DNA from: Macrocybe gigantea
Taxonomy: Eukaryota; Basidiomycota; Agaricomycetes; Agaricales; Callistosporiaceae
Direction: 5' to 3'
Length of the DNA stretch: 64,000 bases
Assembly (NCBI GenBank): GCA_011319805.1
Contig: SJRY01000234.1
Location: 930,001 to 994,000 of the forward strand
The translations under genes were made by a program, and so were the position numbers. Position 1 is the stretch's first letter. Every line of letters starts with the position of its first letter. This document shows, in pieces, positions 1,304 through 13,847 of this stretch. The notes beneath the pieces were generated by a model that searched no databases, was not told the origin of the DNA, and worked only from the letters and a program-made list of their open reading frames with translations.

Positions 1304-4077
1304 TCAAGCCCACACCTTGTCGTTTAGCCTGGATGAACCTGTTCCGAGTTCAGTTGAGGACCAAGGCAAGTTGGCCATAATATCACCTGCCGCATTGGAG
1401 CCCTGGGCTTGGCCCAGATGGGCGTTGCGAGAAAAGCTGGCCCAGTTGCCGGCACTCCCAGAGCGAACATGGCCGTTGACTCTTCCCGTGCTTTCAGTGG
1501 ATGTCATCGTCATGGACGAATGGCCGGGGGCCGGCGGCGAGGAGCTGAAGCTCAATTCCACGTCCGAACCGTTAAAGGAGTGTCTGACGTTCGGGCTTGC
1601 AGAATTGATGTGCTGTTTATGTTTTTTTTTTTTTTTTTTTTTTTTTGACATTGTAAGCGCTACCTTCATATATTCATGAAGGACTCGAACTTACGGGATT
1701 CAATCCAACGATCTCTCGTCGTATACTGTTATTGTGCCTTCCAAGGTCAGGCCCGGCCGTCACTGGACCAGGAGACTTGGTGGAGATATGCTCCGGCGCA
1801 GGTAGCAAGATGCCGTTGCTGGTAAACGTTGGGTAAGCCGACTTGTTTTGTTTTATGACGGTGGCATCAAAAGCGGATTTGGTGTCAACCCTCAATGAGC
1901 CCGTCGGCGGGCGGCTGAGGGCAAACGTATTGCTTGAATTTACGTCTACGGGAGTCGAGATGCTGGGTTCCTGGACACGCTTTGCGGAGATCCTAGCCAA
2001 CAACGACACGCCAGTATCGTTGGGGTCGCTGTTGGTGCTCATCGAACGAGCCCGCCCATCAGGACGTTGCTGAGTGGAACTATTATCTGGGGTGCTGCCA
2101 GTTCCGGTCGCAGTCGACCCACCCGAGGGCGGCAGCTCGGTATGTATAAAGCAACACCTCTTGCCATACGGGCACGATCCGGATACCCAGAAAGTCTATA
2201 CGATGATAGTGAGCGAACTACGAACGCGTGACGGACAAGAGAACGTACGCGGCAAATCTCCGTTTTGTACTTGAGAAAAATTTTGAATGAGGATAGAGAC
2301 ATTTACTGCTTATGGTAGAAGCCTACCTTGGGATGACGGGCAACTTTGCGGAGTTCCTCTTCGCCGTGAGCAAACTGGCACTTGGCGCCGTATCTGCAGC
2401 TGCCTTTCTCTTCCCAGCTTCGGCAGAGTTCAGTCTTATAGAGTCCCAGCTTGCGGTTATTCGCACTTGGCCCTTGACCAGTGGAACTGGGAGGGCTGGA
2501 GATGCCAGTCGTTTCCATAAGACTTTGAGGAGGAAGCAGGCTAACGCCGTACGGACCCGTGTACTGCGCCTGCAAGCGAGCAGCAACGACGGCGGCATCC
2601 GGTACGGCGTACTGCTCCTGGGCGCCATAGTATTGACTCGGATACACAGGAAGCGCAGGGATGCTGGGCTGATACAAGTTTCCCGGGCCGAAGGGGGGCT
2701 GCATGTTGCCGTTCATCAAGGTAAGGGGCGCCGTGTCGCGAATTGTTGATGGGTCCGACGCCGAATGGTGGTGGTTAGCACGGTATGCACCTGGCTGCTG
2801 TTGAACACGTGGTACGGTCGAAAGACCTTCGGCGAGACCGCCAGGCAACATCATGTCATACAGCTGCTGGGAATTACCTAAGGACAGATGCGAGGCGTGG
2901 TGTCCTGACGGATAACCCATGGTGGTGGGGCTTGGGATGATGCCCTGCTGAGGGAAGTTACGAGGGGGCTGGCGGTAGGTCGGACGTGGTGCAACATATG
3001 TAGGCCCCGCTGCAGATTGAAGAGGAAGTCCGTGGGCGACGGAGTTGAAATTGCGTTGATGACTCGCGTACTCGATCGGAGGGTCCTCGCGATTGATTGG
3101 GATCTGAGAAGTGCCGTTTCGATAATCGTATAGCTGTGGATGAAGCTGCGGCTGTGGGCGATGGATGTGATTGGCGAGCGAAGGATACGATAACTGGTCA
3201 CCGTTAGCTCCTGGGTTATTGTAGTGGTTTTGAGGCCAAGACGGCTGTTGTGATGACCTATCCGCAGCATCGAGCGGTTCGCCTGCGTGCTGTAGGCGGC
3301 GAAGATCCGAGGTGGATAGGCCGCCACTAAATGAATGGGGGCGTTCTTTCACCACGTCCGTCATGGTGGTAATTTTCAGAGGGGGCGGTTGGGCCAGCAG
3401 GGTATTTCCAGTGGCCGAGGCTGCAGAATCGCGGGAGCTTGACAATGTGTATCGGTGGATGAACCGCGTGAATGGGAAATGCCAATCTGGTGTTCGGAAG
3501 CGTGAGGAGAGGATCCTGCACTGGTGTTTGAACCGGTTTCCAAAGGACTGGCTTCACTGAGCTGCGCCACAGCAGCAGTGGGCATCTTGGATTTGGGAGG
3601 GGTACGGATTTCGGCACGATCGTCGTCACCTTCGCCGGGGACGTCTCCGATTTTGAGCCTTACAATCTCATCTGCGAGTCCCCAGCCTGTCGAGTCGGAG
3701 TCAACGAGCTGGCCACCATGTTAAATCGCCAACGGTATCTTGGATCAGATGGGGTATTGTCAGAGAGGGTGGACATGGGAAAAGACGGGTTTTCGAGGGT
3801 ATTTGGCGCCGATGTTCGTATGCTATTTGTTCGAGCGGTGAATGGCTCTGTTGGAGTGGATAGATGCCAGTTCTGGATAAATCAATGGGTGAGCGCCATA
3901 CAACACGTGGCAAAGCGGTGCTACCTCTGCTGGAGAAGAGACGTCAAAGGGAGACACTTGGGTCCGGGTGAACGATAGGGAGAGACGATGGCTGTGGTAA
4001 GAGATGGGAGTCAGAGAGTCGTCCAGGTCTTGGTATTCTGTCGTAGCTGCGGATGAGTTCGTGACTGCGTCGTGCAT
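1304..4077 (-). CDS. Tandem CCCH zinc-finger protein (tristetraprolin/Zfs1 type)
   Basis: This is a probable mRNA-binding protein of the tristetraprolin family, which binds AU-rich 3' UTR elements and promotes transcript decay. Finger 1 reads [20 protein letters not shown] then CQFAH (C-x8-C-x5-C-x3-H). Finger 2 is YKTEICR joined by splicing to [18 protein letters not shown], again C-x8-C-x5-C-x3-H. The two fingers are separated by introns at 2270-2326 and 2196-2248 around a 21-nt exon (2249-2269). Long Pro/Gln/Ser-rich arms flank the fingers, typical of the family in fungi. A further intron at about 1613-1694 (donor GTAAGT) contains a 25-T tract. I chose the start at 4077 ([20 protein letters not shown]) with an intron ending near 3702. 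The reading frame must shift by one base near 3441-3460, which may be an assembly error. Fingers are certain; the 5' model is provisional. Confidence 0.8.
1622..1646. repeat. 25-nt poly(T) tract inside an intron of the CCCH gene
   Basis: An uninterrupted run of 25 T (A on the coding strand) lies in the intron at about 1613-1694. Read as coding it would give poly-lysine, but the GTAAGT donor at 1694 and the in-phase CAG acceptor at 1613 place it in an intron. Its length is probably unstable. Confidence 0.85.
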
Positions 4078-5953: not shown

Positions 5954-8900
5954 TTACGCATCTACACGAGACAAGAACGAGTTAACCGGCTGGCTCTCAA
6001 CCGCCCAATTCAAGGTCACTCACAATATGATGTTCCCACCAACATAGTAGATAGACTTTGAAGCTGGTCTTCGTTGAACATCAACTGATCTTTGTGCCAT
6101 GTATCCTACGCGAAGATTAGCTCGTAGAACGGGAAGCATGAACTGACTGATGTTACCTGATGGGTCTGCAATTTCGTAGTCAGTCGGGACTTACTTATGC
6201 GAAGAAGACAGACTTGCCTTTTTAAATTCAGAGGCACACTCCTGAATGGTGGTCGAGATCGGGGGTGGATCAGTGGCATGAAGGGCGAGAACTGCAACAC
6301 GAGGAGGACGTGGAATGGTATCTGATGAGACTCGAAGACGAAATGCACATCCGGTTTTTCATTACCTTCCGTAAGAGGTGGCATCCATGGTTCGACTGAA
6401 TACGGCGAGCTCTCAATGAGCGCGCAGAGTCCGAGGATTCCTGAATGCAGTGCACGGAGAGACTCCCCATAGCCTGGATCTTTCCTTGGCGGCAGCGCGG
6501 TCCTGCGCACTATCTTGACAAACCGTTCCTGTTAGACGAGTAAGTAGTGACCACATGAACTTCTATGTGCGTGGCTAGACTCACTTTCAACGGTACAACG
6601 TTCTGGCGTTGAGAACACCTGATCACGCCAGAAAGAACTTTGGAAGCCATCCCTCTGACTTCCACGTTCTCATCCCCGAGGCATTCCAATAAAACATCCA
6701 TCACTCTAGAGACGCTAGCCTCCGACATGACCATCAGGTTTCTGTAAAAGAATATGACCAAAGCGGGTAAGGCATGTAGACGTATCCGCCATGACTGTCC
6801 AGAGCACCCTGGTGAATTGCCGTCGCAACAAACATGCAGGAATAGTCCCTCACCGTAGATGACTGTACGGCAGCAACAAAGTTGTCCAATATAGTCCTAA
6901 TAAATTCTGCAGGACAAGGCACCGCTGACAGCATGTACAGAACGCCAGCGCTGTAGATTCGTAAATCCATATCGTCGTTGAGTTCCGACATCTGGAGCAT
7001 CTCGGGCCTGTGAAAAAGTCGAGGTCATGTTGGCTCGCCGGAAAATTACGGTACGTACATCATGGGAATGACATAGGGTACTATCATCGGCGCTTCGTGA
7101 GCGTGAATAAAGGCCCAGACCAACTGAAGCACTGTCAATAGTTCGTCAGCATCGCAGAAGAGCATCAATCATGCTAGCGTGGAAGTCATACGAGTTAGGC
7201 CAATTCTGTCGTACTAAATCGAGATTCACGAATTAGCATGTAAGAAGACCAGAAGAATTCATGCCTACCTCTGATTGGCTGACGCGGGGAGGGGGCAGCC
7301 TGCTTTCTCTCAGTCTCGGCAGCTGGTCAAAATCCCATCAATACGATCGAGGTAGTTTGCCTCTCTTAAGTGATTATCAGAAAATGCTGTTCCTCTCTAC
7401 GATCTGCGGCGCACCGTATATGAAGAGGGTCTTGAGTTGTTTTGCTAGCAGACAAGAATGAGGCTACGCTGGGATAAATGGGCCGCCATTGAATTTGCAT
7501 AAGGGAAGCCAAAACTTGGGTTATGTATGCCCCGATCTGTCCAGGTCTTGATTAACGATGGCATCGTAAACAGGAAATCAAAACATCATACTTCGTTGTA
7601 TGCAGTGTTGAAATTTTCAAACATGAAGTTGACATACTTCTCGACTTGAGAAAGGAAGCGTAATCCGACACAACGGATAGCTGTTTGCAGTATTGTGATT
7701 GGCTTCATTACTGTTGACCGGTGAGGGGGAGATGTCACAAGAGAAGGGAATATCCATACTCGCAAACATCGAGTCATCTTTAAAGTCAATAGAGAGACTA
7801 GTGATCCAGTAGAGAAGTTCTTTATTACGGAGTGGATCACGATTCCGTAACTGCACCTGTGGACCAGGTTAGATCTGTCTCAAACACATTCGTGAAAGAA
7901 TACATACCGAGCAGAATCCTTCCCAGAAAGACAGTGTGTCCGGTTTGATTTGCGCATATATCGAGTCTAATTTGTTCACCGCCCACTCCCTAAGCCGGGA
8001 GCTGTCCGATTCAGGCCAGTGTTTGGAGCCTAGTTCTGTCAGCTCATCTCTCCTAGGCATCAGGACGTATCAGCACTGACCGCGAAACAACCCTGCCAAC
8101 AGTTCTCCTCCCGCACGCTGCTTGAATTTGTCATTATCGCCAATAAGAGCTTCAATACTGCCGCGGACTTCATCGACGATTGCAGGCCCAATCATTTTGG
8201 CTTGCACATAGACGATGTTAACGCAATGATCGTACTGTTGGAATTGATTCTCCCTCACCTATGCTCTTGATATATATGACATTTTCCTTCCTCATATCAA
8301 TATCTGAACTCTCTTTGCCAGATTCTTGGGCCCAGAACATCGAGAGGCATTGAAATAATCATTCATTGCTATCTGCTCCTTAAAGGCTTGCAGGCAAGCA
8401 TGTGAGTTGTAATCCCACGGGTTGTCTCGCCTTCCTTGACTCTGCGATACACTTTGATGCTCTTCGTCCAAGAAAGGAATCCAGTGCGGATCTTATCGAC
8501 ATAGAACCTGTTGCACAGAGGCAATGTCAGACTACGAAAAAGAGAGCTGGCAATAACATACTCATGTTCCGAAGGCCATTGTATTGCCTGAAGGAAAGAG
8601 GATGGATCTGTGAGCTGTAACTCTTCCGAGAAAGCGCTCTGCCATTCTTCTCGCCACAGTTCTTCTTGTGATTTAGAATATGTTCGGCCTTTGATGAAAG
8701 CCAACAACCTTGTCATTGCTCTGGAGAAATAAAAGTATATCAGAGACAGACTGACAAGGGGACAGGTAAAAACTACCGTTGTGCTAAGCCTCGAATTGCG
8801 GGTTGGGGACTTAGGGATTGCTCCAAGAGGAACTCGACCACTCCTATGGAAGGTATTTCGTTCCGGCAAAGAAGGCCTGACAAAAATTGGCAGGATATTT

Positions 8901-11900
8901 GCACGTATCTCCACTGGATCGGGATATTATATGAAACCATTTTCAGCTGATGTTTCATGCAACTCACATGTATTGCCGACCTTTTTGCAATTGCGAGAAT
9001 GGATGTGACCTGGATTATGTTGAATATACCATATCTTGTGATGCACATAGTGTAGCTTACCGTTTCCCTATACACTTTACCTCGCTGGGCAACTCGTGTT
9101 TCCCTTTTGCGCAAGGCTTCCGCCAGAAGATTAGGAGAAACAAAGCCTTTCGGGAATTCCGACTCCAGTGCCAACAATGCTTTATCTACTGAAGGCGTTT
9201 CCAAGCAATACGCATCGGTATGGAATGCTTCCTCATAGAGATGAGAAGCACATTCTTCCGCAATGGAACTGACCAAAGTTTGAATGGATTGCTGTGTACA
9301 CGTTTGTCAATTCGCTGGCGTCACGATGAGATTAAATTCACCTTCTCCTCATGTTGACATTCCAATAGAGAAGTCAGATAGCGAGTATGGCTATTGATAT
9401 CTGGGAGCCTCCTGTTAGGCCTATGTCAAACCGATTAACTAGCATCGCTACCTCCGAGAGCATAACTCGCTATGGTCTCGTCAGCAAGGCTATATGTGAT
9501 GGATGACACACATACCAATAGACTTGTCCCCAAGCACAAACAAAGCACCTTTCATTCTGTCCGGATCGTTCCCCTTCTTCAAAGCTCCAAACAACATAGG
9601 AAGCGCGTAGCGAGTCGAACGGACGTAGTACTAAGTGGAGCGATTAAGGCGAATTTGTCATTGAATGATTTGGGGCATACCTTGCACACAGTGTGGAACA
9701 CACTTTGAGCTTGGCTGCAGAAATGTTAGTATTGTGCAGAGCAATAAGTAGTCATTCATCTTACCGCCTTATTCGAGTATAAGGAGATAAAGAAAGTTCG
9801 ACAATTTCATTGAGGAGATCGTCATCAAGGGCTGACCGCCTGCGGTACAAAGCATGCATGTAAAGACGGCCGCTGTGATAAGTATGGGCTCGTTTTATTT
9901 GCACTATTCTAGAGTTCGCTTTTTGACCTGGCCATGTCCGGATCAAGCTAAAAGATAGTTAGGAATATGACAAGTCATGTCTGCCAAAAGACTTACTTGC
10001 GGCCTGGGCGTAATTTTTCTGCATAGCATCAAAATCCTTTCGAGTTAGACCATAGCAGGTCAAATATGTGTCAACTGCCTTGACGGCGGCTATGACAGCA
10101 TCAATATGATCCTCAGCCCCGGCCTCCTGCCGCAAGAGCGATGCAGCTCGCTTAGCAATGGCACCGAAACGTCGCCGGTGTTCCGCAACTTGCTTGTAAC
10201 GGGGGTCGTCCGGATCAGTCAGCGCAAAACCAGCCTTGACGTCGAGAGACGACACTAGCAGATCGGCGACTTCTGCATCTCGGTCAATACAGGGATTCAC
10301 AACGTCCTTGAAATGCTCCTGGCATATAGTCGCGAGACCTCCCCATATTGATCGACATGCGAGCAAGAACCTGGCGCATTGTTCAACGCGACTACGAACC
10401 ATGCAGGATCAATGCCCCTTACCTGCAGAAATCATTTCGCGCAGCACTGTCCCATGCCGAGGTAGAGTCTAACAATGATTCTATTCTGTTCAACAGAGGC
10501 CGAGTAATCTTGTCGAGTATTTCTAAGACGAAATCGATCTCTTCCGAGAAGGGACTAGCAAAAACGTTGACTAAAAGTCAGTTACAAGGAATGACTCACA
10601 TACCATGCCACTCCACAACCACGTCCTCTGGATTATAAAGACGGCCCCACCATAGGTTGTGGTCTCTATCGAAGTCTGCATGGAATGAGAGATCATCATA
10701 GCTCATCGCAGGAGCTAGCCTCACCATGATCATGCCATAAGTCTGAGTTTACAAAACGGCTGTTCGAAGGATAAACGCCGGATACAGTATACACTATTCG
10801 GGTGAGCAAGCGACCGGTGGCAGTGTATCCTCGCTCGGTCTTAGTTTTCTCGACAAGGAGGGTTAAAATTTCAATGATACGTTGTCTGTAAGGCAACAAC
10901 TAGGGGAAGTAAGCTATCAGCAGCCAATCGTTCAGAGATAGAAGGAAGATTCACGGCTGCTCCACAATGGCCTAGGCAGCCACGTAAAACCGACAGGTCT
11001 TATCAACGGCTTAGCAAGGAAACGAAGTAATAGACACATGAAAATACTTACTCCAATGCAAGGTCGTGTCCGACGGCAGCGCAGCATGGGACGACGTGGT
11101 GCGTATGTCGGATGCCCCATGTTTGAGCTCCTCCTCGATTTGAGATATGCAATGAGGAACAAATTTTCGCAAGGTTCGTTCGGGTTGGACATGTGCTAAA
11201 CATGCCACCAGTTCCCCAATTGCTTGTACTGAGTTGGATTTGGCGTTGGTCGTCGTGTAATCATACACGAGATTCAACACGAGGGAGAAAAGGTCGTCAG
11301 ATAGATGTAGACAGACGATGTCCATCATGCCCTTGACAGCTTTCAGCATACCCTCTTCCGCTTTGCCACCAATCGTGTTCTTTTTGCCACCCTCCTCCGG
11401 CAAGTTTTCGTAGAGGGCAAAAACACGGCGCACCAGGGCAGCGACCCAATCTTTATCCAGATATTCAGGAAGAAGAACAGATGAGTTGAGGAAGGAAATC
11501 ACCTGCAAAACCACTGGTGCTGTCTCTTACTAGTGATCTTTCTTCTGCGACGCTCATCCCTGAAAAGTCGCCATCATCTGTGCTCATACGGTCACGTCCT
11601 GGAAGGACGCTGGAGTCGTCCATTTTGGAAGGCATCTTGGTCAAGTCGCCGAGTTTGATATGTTGAACGGCCGATGCAATGAACATTGTCGCACACATTG
11701 TCTTTGCAGGGTCGTTCTGATTCAGAGTTGATTAGTGGGAGAATAAAGAAGTGAAAAGAATAATATAAGGCGACACGAACGAGATCGATTCCGGGGTGCT
11801 TAGCTCTAACAGGGGAAGAAGATGCTTCTGACCGCCGAGCCAGATTTTCTCGGTAACCAGGGGTCGAGCTATGCCACTCAGCATGCCTAATACTGCTGTA

Positions 11901-13847
11901 GTGCGATGTGTCTCATTAACAACCTCAAGACCAGAATAAGCACGTTCAAGGAGCTCAGGCATGATTATATCAGGCTCCAAAATAGCCAAGGCCTTGAGCG
12001 ACTCTTGCGCGTATGACATGGATGTGCTGTCCTTTGAGAACATTGCAAGAAGAGCCGGTGTTTGGAGGATGGATACGAAAGCATGGCGCAAACCAGGAGT
12101 AATTCGAAAAGCCTGACGGAACTTTGCTAAGAGATCACAACTCGGGATGACAAGTTCCTTACAACTGGCGTTTTACATGTTTCTAGCTCTTCTTGGTTGA
12201 CCCGGGTCATGAATTCAGATGTAAGCCGATATAGGAAGGCCGTCAACTGGAAAACAAGAACTCAGTATGTCTGAAAACTAATCGCAATACACTCACAGTA
12301 TGGGTCCAGGCCCCTGAATTCGAAGGGTGAAAGAAGGGCTCTGTGCTAGTTATCAAACGGTCGAGTGCATCTAGTGCTCTCGATCCCCCCACATAGCCTT
12401 TGGGATTAGCTTCATCACGGACATCGCCGTCGACCGCGATTGAATGAACGATAATTTTGGCAAGGGCGTCTTACATCGAAAGGACAGTTGGACGTTTACT
12501 TCGGTTATAAGCAAACGACTTACGTTGTCTGTTCACCGGTTTTTTGACACGAGATGAGCCCTTGTCTGCCAGTGAATCCGCTTGAGGGGCTGTTGTGGAG
12601 AATCCCTGTTCCCAAATAATTTGAGAAGCTGAACCCAGCGAAAAAATAGTAATAGATATTCACCTGCGCCGACCCGATGGGAACATCTACAGGGCAATAT
12701 GAAGCTGATATCCAATGAACTGATCAAGACCACCCACCCATCGAAACCAATCCTTTGCTCACAAGCATATCCCATTGCCACTCACTCCATATGCCGACGT
12801 AATGGTGCTGAGGTAATCCATCAACGCTTTGGCTACCGTCCGCTCCGCAAACTAGTTCTTGGGATAAGACGCCAGCAAAATCCATCAATCTATCATCTAG
12901 AACAGATGAATTGAACGCCTCCCAGATTCTGAAGAGGGCTGGCAAGTAGAGATCGGTGCTAGTCGGAGGCAGGAAAGAGGTTAATACAGGGATCATAGTC
13001 ATGATGGTCTAACAATGAAGCGTTAGTTGAATTTCGGTAAGGAATCTTGAGAACGTCGACCTTGCCGGTAAGAAGCGGTAAGAAGGTGTCAAGCATGTTA
13101 GGGACTTCCTCAGCGGGGAAGTACCATCGACAGTGCTCCGCAAGGAACAACAAAATATTGGCAACGTTACGTCTAATCGATTTTTTTTTAGCATTGCATA
13201 ATTCTTCGTCAGCGAACAGAGCTCACGAAGAGTCCTGCATTCTCTTGGTCGGCCAAAGCTCCCGCTTAAGGGCGCGCCATAAAGGTTGCCACGGCAATTG
13301 AAGGTCCGAAATCTCCAGTTTGCGCTTCAAACCTGGCTTGTTTGAAAGAACCCGAGTGACCATGTCGGTCCAGCTGCGTATGACTCGCGGCTCGATGCCC
13401 GGGAGAAGGCTCAATTCATAGTATAGGCGTACAAGCTTTGCACGCGTCGTGATTGGCATCGGATAACGCATGAGAATCCAGCTATGGATACAAGGAAAGA
13501 AACAACGATTATCACGACAGCAAGGTGGAAGGGTCATGGAAATACCATTGAAGCATGCCGTCCCAGGTGCTCAGGACAAGCCAGTTCTTGGCTCTGGCAC
13601 ATACATATATCTTTTCAACTACATCTTCTAGTTTCTTCTGCATCTCCTCGTAGGATTCACACTCGTAAGGAACCGAGTCTAGATAAGATTGCAGGGATAC
13701 ACGCTGCTTTTCGGTAAGCAGGGATTCAGCAGTCTCCGCCACGGAAACTTCGTCTTCATCCATGTCCATACCAAGATCAGTGGATGTGGAAGAGGTGCAG
13801 GAGGAGGAGTCTGCACCAGAATAATGGAATAATTCAGTAAGATCCAT
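5954..13847 (-). CDS. BLM10: Proteasome activator BLM10/PA200
   Basis: This is the giant HEAT-repeat activator that caps the 20S proteasome core and opens its gate; the family acts in nuclear and cytosolic proteolysis, histone turnover and DNA repair. Recognisable blocks from the N-terminus are an acidic leader after MDLTELFHYSG, a helix with WDGMLQWYF, then WILMRYPMPITTRAKLVRLY, LFLAEHCRWYFPAEEVPNML, LPALFRIWEAFNSSVLDDRL, and repeated HEAT-like helices to the end. The 3' end was reconstructed by splicing: EFKK, then THQ from a 9-nt exon (6157-6165), then DTWHKDQLMFNEDQLQSLST (exon 6024-6105), then an 8-nt exon (5954-5961) that completes SYYA-stop. That Tyr-Tyr-Ala tail is the family's HbYX-like gate-opening motif. 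The intron at 6166-6217 starts with GC. Around thirty short introns are implied, giving roughly 1,900 residues, as usual for the family. The start at 13847 is the best Met in the first coding exon; a 5' UTR intron upstream is possible. Confidence 0.93.

What the first reader, a model, noticed from the sequence alone, without database searches (positions are those of the whole stretch)
5954..6024. BLM10 gate-opening Tyr-Tyr-Ala tail is split by an intron; terminal coding exon is 8 nt
Unspliced, the gene would end ...SYCE-stop. Splicing a clean GTGAGT...GTGTAG intron (5962-6023) joins TCATATT to ATGCGTAA and gives Ser-Tyr-Tyr-Ala-stop, the HbYX-like tail that Blm10/PA200 inserts into the proteasome alpha ring. 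Retention of this intron would make a form lacking the motif, so splicing could switch activator function.
Basis: partly seen in the sequence, partly recalled or inferred. Interest (0 to 1): 0.75.

Follow-up and report, generated by a model that had tools for sequence, protein, structure and literature searches.

The report
Intron-split tail of mushroom proteasome activator
In this mushroom genome, the motif by which a proteasome cap opens the proteasome gate is completed only when the gene's last intron is removed; this arrangement is old, is shared by two sister genes and is often missed by gene annotation, but nothing yet shows that cells use it as a switch.

Summary
On the minus strand, removing a 62-nt intron (6023-5962) joins TCATATT to ATGCGTAA and gives Ser-Tyr-Tyr-Ala-stop; unspliced, the frame ends SYCE-stop. 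A second PA200/BLM10 gene, 29 kb away on the same contig, has the same intron position and phase. The window gene belongs to paralog B and the neighbour to paralog A of a duplication older than the sampled Agaricomycetes. In 75 of 75 listed protein models that lose YYA but keep Ser-Tyr and continue, the next residue fits a codon starting with T, as a T|GT split predicts. All 16 proteins known only from short 'lgn' contigs, five of which look like transcripts, end YYA. I conclude that the intron is ancestral and normally removed, and that YYA-less database proteins are mostly annotation errors. The proposed switch is unsupported: strong splice signals, and read-through tails share neither length nor sequence. 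Two by-products may matter more: paired PA200 genes, against a survey reporting one per genome, and a conserved 9-nt microexon, Thr-His-Gln, in paralog B. The window copy shows five likely -1 frameshifts, perhaps assembly errors.

The parts
5954..13847 (-). PA200/BLM10 paralog B gene; CDS from a probable in-frame ATG at 13847 to the TAA at 5954; 40 introns in the model
   Evidence: Spliced alignment to a profile of 83 B proteins, aligned from 13811 on, 65.6% identity to consensus over 1893 residues; start ATG is only the in-frame ATG found upstream; Pfam PF16507, PF23096, PF11919 over cut-off
6024..6105 (-). penultimate coding exon, DTWHKDQLMFNEDQLQSLSTMLVGTSY plus the first base of the next Tyr codon
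   Evidence: Sequence and profile alignments
5962..6023 (-). tail intron, 62 nt, GTGAGT...GTGTAG, phase 1
   Evidence: same position and phase in the second copy
6016..6018 (-). TGA that would end the unspliced frame after Ser-Tyr-Cys-Glu
   Evidence: Sequence
5981..5985 (-). TTAAC, branch-point-like site 20 nt before the 3' splice site
   Evidence: match to a recalled fungal branch consensus only
5954..5961 (-). terminal coding piece ATGCGTAA: two bases of Tyr, Ala, stop
   Evidence: Sequence; ATGCATAA in the second copy
6157..6165 (-). 9-nt microexon ACCCATCAG (Thr-His-Gln)
   Evidence: pattern of skips and read-through in B models
6166..6217 (-). GC-AG intron before the microexon (GCAAGT...TTGCAG)
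6106..6156 (-). GT-AG intron after the microexon (GTAACA...GCGTAG)

Best explanation
This is a PA200/Blm10 proteasome activator gene, paralog B of an ancient pair in Agaricomycetes. Its C-terminal Tyr-Tyr-Ala is completed by removal of an ancestral last intron that splits the second Tyr codon after its first base. Shown: the tail and the intron signals, their sharing with paralog A in the same genome, and a matching footprint in public protein models across the class. Inferred: the intron is normally removed, giving a cap whose last three residues enter the pocket between alpha5 and alpha6 of the 20S core and help open the gate, as in human PA200. YYA-less proteins in databases are mostly failures of gene prediction at an 8-nt terminal coding piece.
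For: Same intron position and phase in both copies, which share 23 of 40 window introns. Tails: A 69 of 128 YYA and 39 Cys; B 88 of 121 YYA and 17 Cys. 75 of 75 other continuations fit a T-starting codon; C, Y, S, F, L and W make up 30.3% of all residues of these proteins. Ten models end Asp-Ala, as expected if the intron is read straight into ATGCNTAA. 16 of 16 'lgn' proteins end YYA against 141 of 233 others. Strong splice signals. Pfam PSME4_C matched to its last position, 88 of 88. One mismatch at 197 columns invariant in 83 other B proteins.
Against: No RNA from this species. In other species the intron is inferred from failures of gene models, not read in DNA. That 'lgn' contigs are transcripts is my inference from their length and is firm for five only. 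Each listed protein stands for a 90% cluster, so retained forms could be hidden. Five frameshift calls in the window copy leave its integrity open.
Confidence: 0.85

Rival explanations
1. Regulated switch: retention of the last intron is used at some stage or under stress to make a PA200 ending SYCE, which caps or competes for the 20S core without opening the gate.
For: Retention would remove the motif. Intron retention is the commonest alternative splicing event in Schizophyllum commune (PMC5034255, abstract and passages) and one of the two major types in Coprinopsis cinerea (PMC10532568, passages). In Fusarium graminearum, loss of as few as 11 C-terminal residues of Blm10 suppressed a pkr mutant while loss of the gene did not (PMC9499325, passages), so a tail-less form need not be inert.
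Against: Top-scoring donor of the gene. Read-through tails of 1 to 55 residues without shared length or sequence. The two copies in this genome would end differently, SYCE and SYCQWPD. 16 of 16 'lgn' proteins are spliced. The two mushroom splicing papers do not mention the proteasome in their main text.
Confidence: 0.08
2. The window copy is a young pseudogene; its tail is a relic and only paralog A works in this strain.
For: Five credible -1 frameshift calls at 11797, 10003, 8422, 8348 and 7327; copy A shows none over a similar length. The window branch in the tree is among the longer B branches, 0.66, with only Coprinopsis cinerea longer at 0.76.
Against: No in-frame stop and splice sites found for 40 introns. 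One mismatch at 197 otherwise invariant columns, like the median of the other B proteins. All five calls are single-base losses in or beside short runs of one base, which long-read assemblies also produce (recalled).
Confidence: 0.15
3. There is no tail intron: the protein ends SYCE and the YYA match is a coincidence.
For: The unspliced frame does reach a stop, and several public models end SSYC or SSYCE.
Against: Both copies give YYA with a single intron placement; 157 of 249 models and human PA200 end YYA; 75 of 75 other continuations fit the split codon.
Confidence: 0.01

Closest known systems
Human PA200 / PSME4 (PDB 6rey, 7naq, 8cvs, 6kwx)
   Same: C-terminal family match from end to end of the queried part and an identical YYA end (with paralog A as query); YYA opens the gate (PMC7077846, passages).
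   Different: One gene per genome according to Fort et al. 2015 (PMC4453063, passages). Whether the human gene has an intron at this site was not tested.
Yeast Blm10 (PDB 4v7o, 9d0t)
   Same: C-terminal part matched to the last residue of the chain.
   Different: Lower similarity (52.9 to 55.3 bits against 176.1 for human). That the yeast gene is intronless is recalled.
Agaricomycete PA200 paralog A (the neighbouring gene; P0001 and others)
   Same: Same tail, same tail-intron position and phase, 23 shared introns.
   Different: The window protein is 40.3% identical to the A consensus over 1824 residues; A keeps THQDTW without signs of a microexon.
Xlr2 microexon of Trichoderma virens (PMC11121469)
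   Same: A very short fungal exon; that paper says functional microexons had not been described in filamentous fungi before (abstract and passages).
   Different: There inclusion is shown to be regulated; here the 9-nt exon is inferred and regulation was not tested.

Membership tests
Blm10/PA200 (PSME4) | PF11919 (PSME4_C) at the C-terminus | tested here: met
   E 1.3e-31, 108.7 bits over a 22.5 cut-off, profile 3-88 of 88, to the last residue of the spliced model
Blm10/PA200 (PSME4) | PSME4 mid-region and HEAT-like repeat domains | tested here: met
   PF16507 E 2.2e-177 and PF23096 E 1.7e-10, both over cut-off
Blm10/PA200 (PSME4) | C-terminal HbYX-like YYA end | tested here: met
   Met only in the spliced form; the unspliced form ends SYCE
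Blm10/PA200 (PSME4) | Single gene per genome (Fort et al. 2015) | tested here: not met
   Two PF11919 loci in this genome and A and B types in many Agaricomycetes; this is an observation about genomes, not a defining feature of the protein
[quoted passage not shown]
   Needs biochemistry
Splicing-controlled switch | Retained form conserved, or weak splice sites | tested here: not met
   Top-scoring donor; read-through tails without shared length or sequence
Splicing-controlled switch | Condition-dependent retention in RNA | not testable with these tools
   No RNA reads at hand
Conserved microexon | Same very short exon with introns on both sides in several species | tested here: inconclusive
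   Clear in the window DNA; in other species inferred from 9 exact skips, 5 FKK|V and 2 THQ|V among 121 B models, against none among 128 A models

The most novel reading that the evidence does not exclude
Mushroom-forming fungi keep two anciently diverged PA200 caps, usually linked on one chromosome, and both place the gate-opening tail behind the last splice event. Developmentally tuned retention would yield gate-dead caps, so that one splice junction per gene sets the ratio of gate-opening to gate-blocking caps; in paralog B the 9-nt Thr-His-Gln microexon would be a second adjustable element close to the tail.
Probability: 0.08. Interest if true: 0.82.

Novelty: new variant of a known kind. 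Interest (0 to 1): 0.5.

Why it matters
The residues that make PA200 a gate opener are lost from a predicted protein unless an 8-nt coding piece is annotated correctly: 92 of the 249 Agaricomycete models examined do not end in YYA. Catalogues of HbYX proteins built on predicted proteomes, such as ProEnd (PMC11475706, passages), would miss such models; that is my inference, not checked in ProEnd. An ancient A/B pair means that work on mushroom PA200 has to treat two activators, and it offers a natural comparison of two long-diverged caps that both keep YYA. The tail intron and the 9-nt microexon make the splicing question directly testable in RNA-seq.

Tried and rejected
A first gene finder using codon bias gave a wrong end for the window gene. 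A paralog-guided run returned no tblastn matches, because of an option that I take to have been invalid, so its models equal those; one search corrected this, recovered the tail intron, but still mis-spliced the exons before it, and so did with homologs. Profile-to-DNA alignment solved it.

An apparent frameshift upstream of DTW in the window was rejected: a GC-AG intron, a 9-nt exon and a GT-AG intron explain it. The one frameshift called in copy A was rejected by eye in favour of a noncanonical donor, GTTCTG. The call at 13066 in the window sits at an intron edge and was set aside likewise; the call at 12991 with the A profile did not recur with the B profile.

An attempt to date the intron outside Agaricomycetes gave three Tilletia proteins as the only listed non-Agaricomycetes; they end DYFV and say nothing about the intron. 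No structure was predicted: the protein exceeds the tool's size limit and the family is clear by sequence. Codon-level selection (dN/dS) could not be computed, since only proteins of the relatives were at hand.

Literature: paper searches listed no paper on a tail-splitting PA200 intron, on PA200 paralogs in Agaricomycetes or on a PA200 microexon; the library holds only open-licence papers. Passages were read in PMC9499325, PMC11475706, PMC4453063, PMC7077846, PMC5034255, PMC10532568 and PMC11121469; in PMC11851449 only a line of the reference list matched. Everything else was seen as listings only.

Full report
WHAT IS THERE. The feature lies on the minus strand. The penultimate coding exon ends ...GGA ACA TCA TAT T at 6024; the intron runs from 6023 to 5962 (GTGAGT...GTGTAG, 62 nt); reading resumes with AT GCG TAA at 5961-5954. 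Spliced, the protein ends Thr-Ser-Tyr-Tyr-Ala; unspliced, the frame runs on to Ser-Tyr-Cys-Glu and stops at the TGA at 6018-6016. The 8 nt are only the coding part of the last exon and include the stop. With a hand-made scoring the donor has the top score (ties included) of the gene's 40 introns; the length, 62, lies within the gene's range of 45 to 74 (median 52); TTAAC lies 20 nt before the 3' splice site.

THE SECOND GENE. The window is G000:C233:930001-994000 of a 41.2 Mb assembly. PF11919 gave four exon-sized matches at two loci: the window gene and a gene on the plus strand at about 897.9-906.5 kb. That gene ends TCG TAC T | GTCAGT...GATAG | AT GCA TAA, again Ser-Tyr-Tyr-Ala, with the tail intron at the same profile position and phase as in the window. 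Of 40 window introns, 23 match one of the other gene's 48 in exact position and phase, so the tail intron is one of many shared introns and not an exception. The two genes face each other, tail to tail, with about 29 kb between their stop codons. The combined tail pattern occurs exactly twice in the assembly, at these two tails, against one hit for the control, the pattern read backwards.

TWO ANCIENT PARALOGS. A search with the neighbour's C-terminal part gave 260 proteins, of which 120 are listed. A search with the window protein gave 291, of which 120 are listed; no protein is in both lists. A third, length-steered search gave 14: 2 already known, 8 further A-type, 1 B-type and 3 from Tilletia. 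A tree of 48 proteins that I chose by hand (20 species with both types, three further A, the two genes here, three Tilletia) puts A (24 rows) and B (21 rows) each on one side of a branch with SH-aLRT support 100, Tilletia apart. Rooted on Tilletia, the duplication precedes the split of the Agaricomycetes sampled; Rickenella (Hymenochaetales, recalled) is in both clades. An older duplication with loss elsewhere cannot be excluded with one outgroup genus. By hand collation, 61 species names with contig lengths occur among both the A and the B rows. In 49 of 61 the longest contig has the same length for A and B, which I take to mean the same contig. The 12 that differ include assemblies of short contigs and different strains. 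Locus tags of six linked pairs differ by 7 to 15 (names). Fort et al. 2015 state that PA200 is coded by a unique gene in each genome and that PF11919 was found once per genome (PMC4453063, passages). That does not hold here; which basidiomycetes they sampled I did not see.

THE TAIL ACROSS THE CLASS. DNA of the relatives was not at hand, so intron position was read from the way gene models fail. Of 128 A models, 69 end YYA, 39 continue after Ser-Tyr with Cys, 6 with Tyr and then something else, 4 with Ser, Phe or Leu, 2 end at Ser-Tyr and 8 lack the block. Of 121 B models the numbers are 88, 17, 5, 4, 1 and 6. The three Tilletia proteins are left out of these counts. The models that keep Ser-Tyr, do not end YYA and do continue number 75, and in all of them the next residue can be encoded by a codon beginning with T (49 of 49 A, 26 of 26 B). 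C, Y, S, F, L and W together make up 30.3% of the residues of these proteins and Cys 1.5%. This is what a T|GT split predicts. Ten models end Asp-Ala, as expected if the intron is read straight into ATGCNTAA. After Cys, Glu and Lys are commonest (14 and 13 of 56), as GTGAG and GTAAG donors would give. Read-through ends are 1 to 55 residues long and share no evident sequence, apart from close relatives within Lentinula.

EVIDENCE FOR SPLICING. Sixteen of the proteins have the source tag lgn alone. All 16 end YYA, against 141 of the other 233. Five come from contigs only 144 to 319 nt longer than the coding sequence (P0122, P0140, P0201, P0213, P0221), too short for a gene with dozens of introns, so I infer that these are transcript assemblies; for the other eleven this is less certain. 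Each stands for a 90% cluster, so minor retained forms could be hidden.

STATE OF THE WINDOW COPY. Against a profile of 83 B proteins the window gene aligns over 1893 residues at 65.6% identity, with 40 introns and no in-frame stop. Six frameshifts were called; one (13066) sits at an intron edge and probably reflects an unusual donor. The other five are single-base losses in or beside short runs of one base. At 197 columns invariant in all 83 others, the window protein differs once; the median of the others, each left out in turn, is 1, and 17 of 83 have more. Places where the frame shifts were not counted. So constraint held until recently, and I think assembly error likelier than decay, although copy A shows no such losses over a similar length and the window branch is among the longer B branches.

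HOW IT LIKELY WORKS. In human PA200 the C-terminal YYA enters the pocket between alpha5 and alpha6 and helps displace the Pro17 turn (PMC7077846, abstract and passages). The paralog A tail aligns to human PA200 to the last residue, and the window protein fills PF11919 to its last position. I infer that the spliced protein opens the gate likewise and that splicing is routine. A retained form would lack the motif. In Fusarium graminearum, loss of as few as 11 C-terminal residues of Blm10 suppressed a pkr mutant although loss of the whole gene did not (PMC9499325, passages), so a tail-less form need not be inert. Against a switch stand the strong splice signals, the lack of a shared retained tail and the spliced transcripts.

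MICROEXON. In the window, Thr-His-Gln of the THQDTW motif is a 9-nt exon (6165-6157) between a GC-AG and a GT-AG intron. Of 121 B models, 100 keep the motif, 9 lack exactly these three residues, 5 read on with Val after Phe-Lys-Lys, 2 read on with Val after Thr-His-Gln, 3 have other sequence before DTW and 2 lack the region. Of 128 A models, 122 keep it and 6 lack the region. The skips are thus confined to B and fit a conserved microexon that predictors drop. All 10 B proteins of lgn origin include it. The window's GC donor would read on with Ala, so the five Val read-throughs suggest GT donors elsewhere.

NOVELTY. I found no paper in ten searches of an open-licence library on the tail intron, the Agaricomycete pair or the microexon. 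The protein belongs to a known family; gene pair, tail intron and microexon are variants on it.

Noticed in passing
window 5954-13847 (-) and G000:C233 about 897.9-906.5 kb (+), L005: Two PA200 genes of an ancient duplication lie tail to tail about 29 kb apart; in 49 of 61 species with both types listed, both sit on contigs of equal length (hand recount).
   Followed up: yes
window 6157-6165 (-): A 9-nt microexon encoding Thr-His-Gln, preceded by a GC-AG intron; B models of other species skip it exactly in 9 of 121.
   Followed up: partly
window 11797, 10003, 8422, 8348, 7327 (-): Five likely -1 frameshifts in paralog B, in or beside short runs of one base, while conserved columns are intact: assembly errors or very recent inactivation.
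   Followed up: partly
window 2303-3445 (-), with the ORF at 1304-1669 (-): A CCCH zinc-finger gene lies just downstream of paralog B; in the models P0134 (Tetrapyrgos) and P0249 (Fibroporia) B is fused to a CCCH protein, which suggests conserved gene order and annotation fusions.
   Followed up: partly
L005 9512-9517: In copy A the tail intron has a competing CAG 4 nt before the used ATAG; using it would give ...SYYRCIN instead of YYA (read).
   Followed up: no
PF11919 region of copy A and of the window protein: Asn1716 and Phe1717 of human PA200, reported to bind acetylated histones (PMC7077846, passages), align to Ser-Pro in A and, by eye, to Ser-Gln in B.
   Followed up: no
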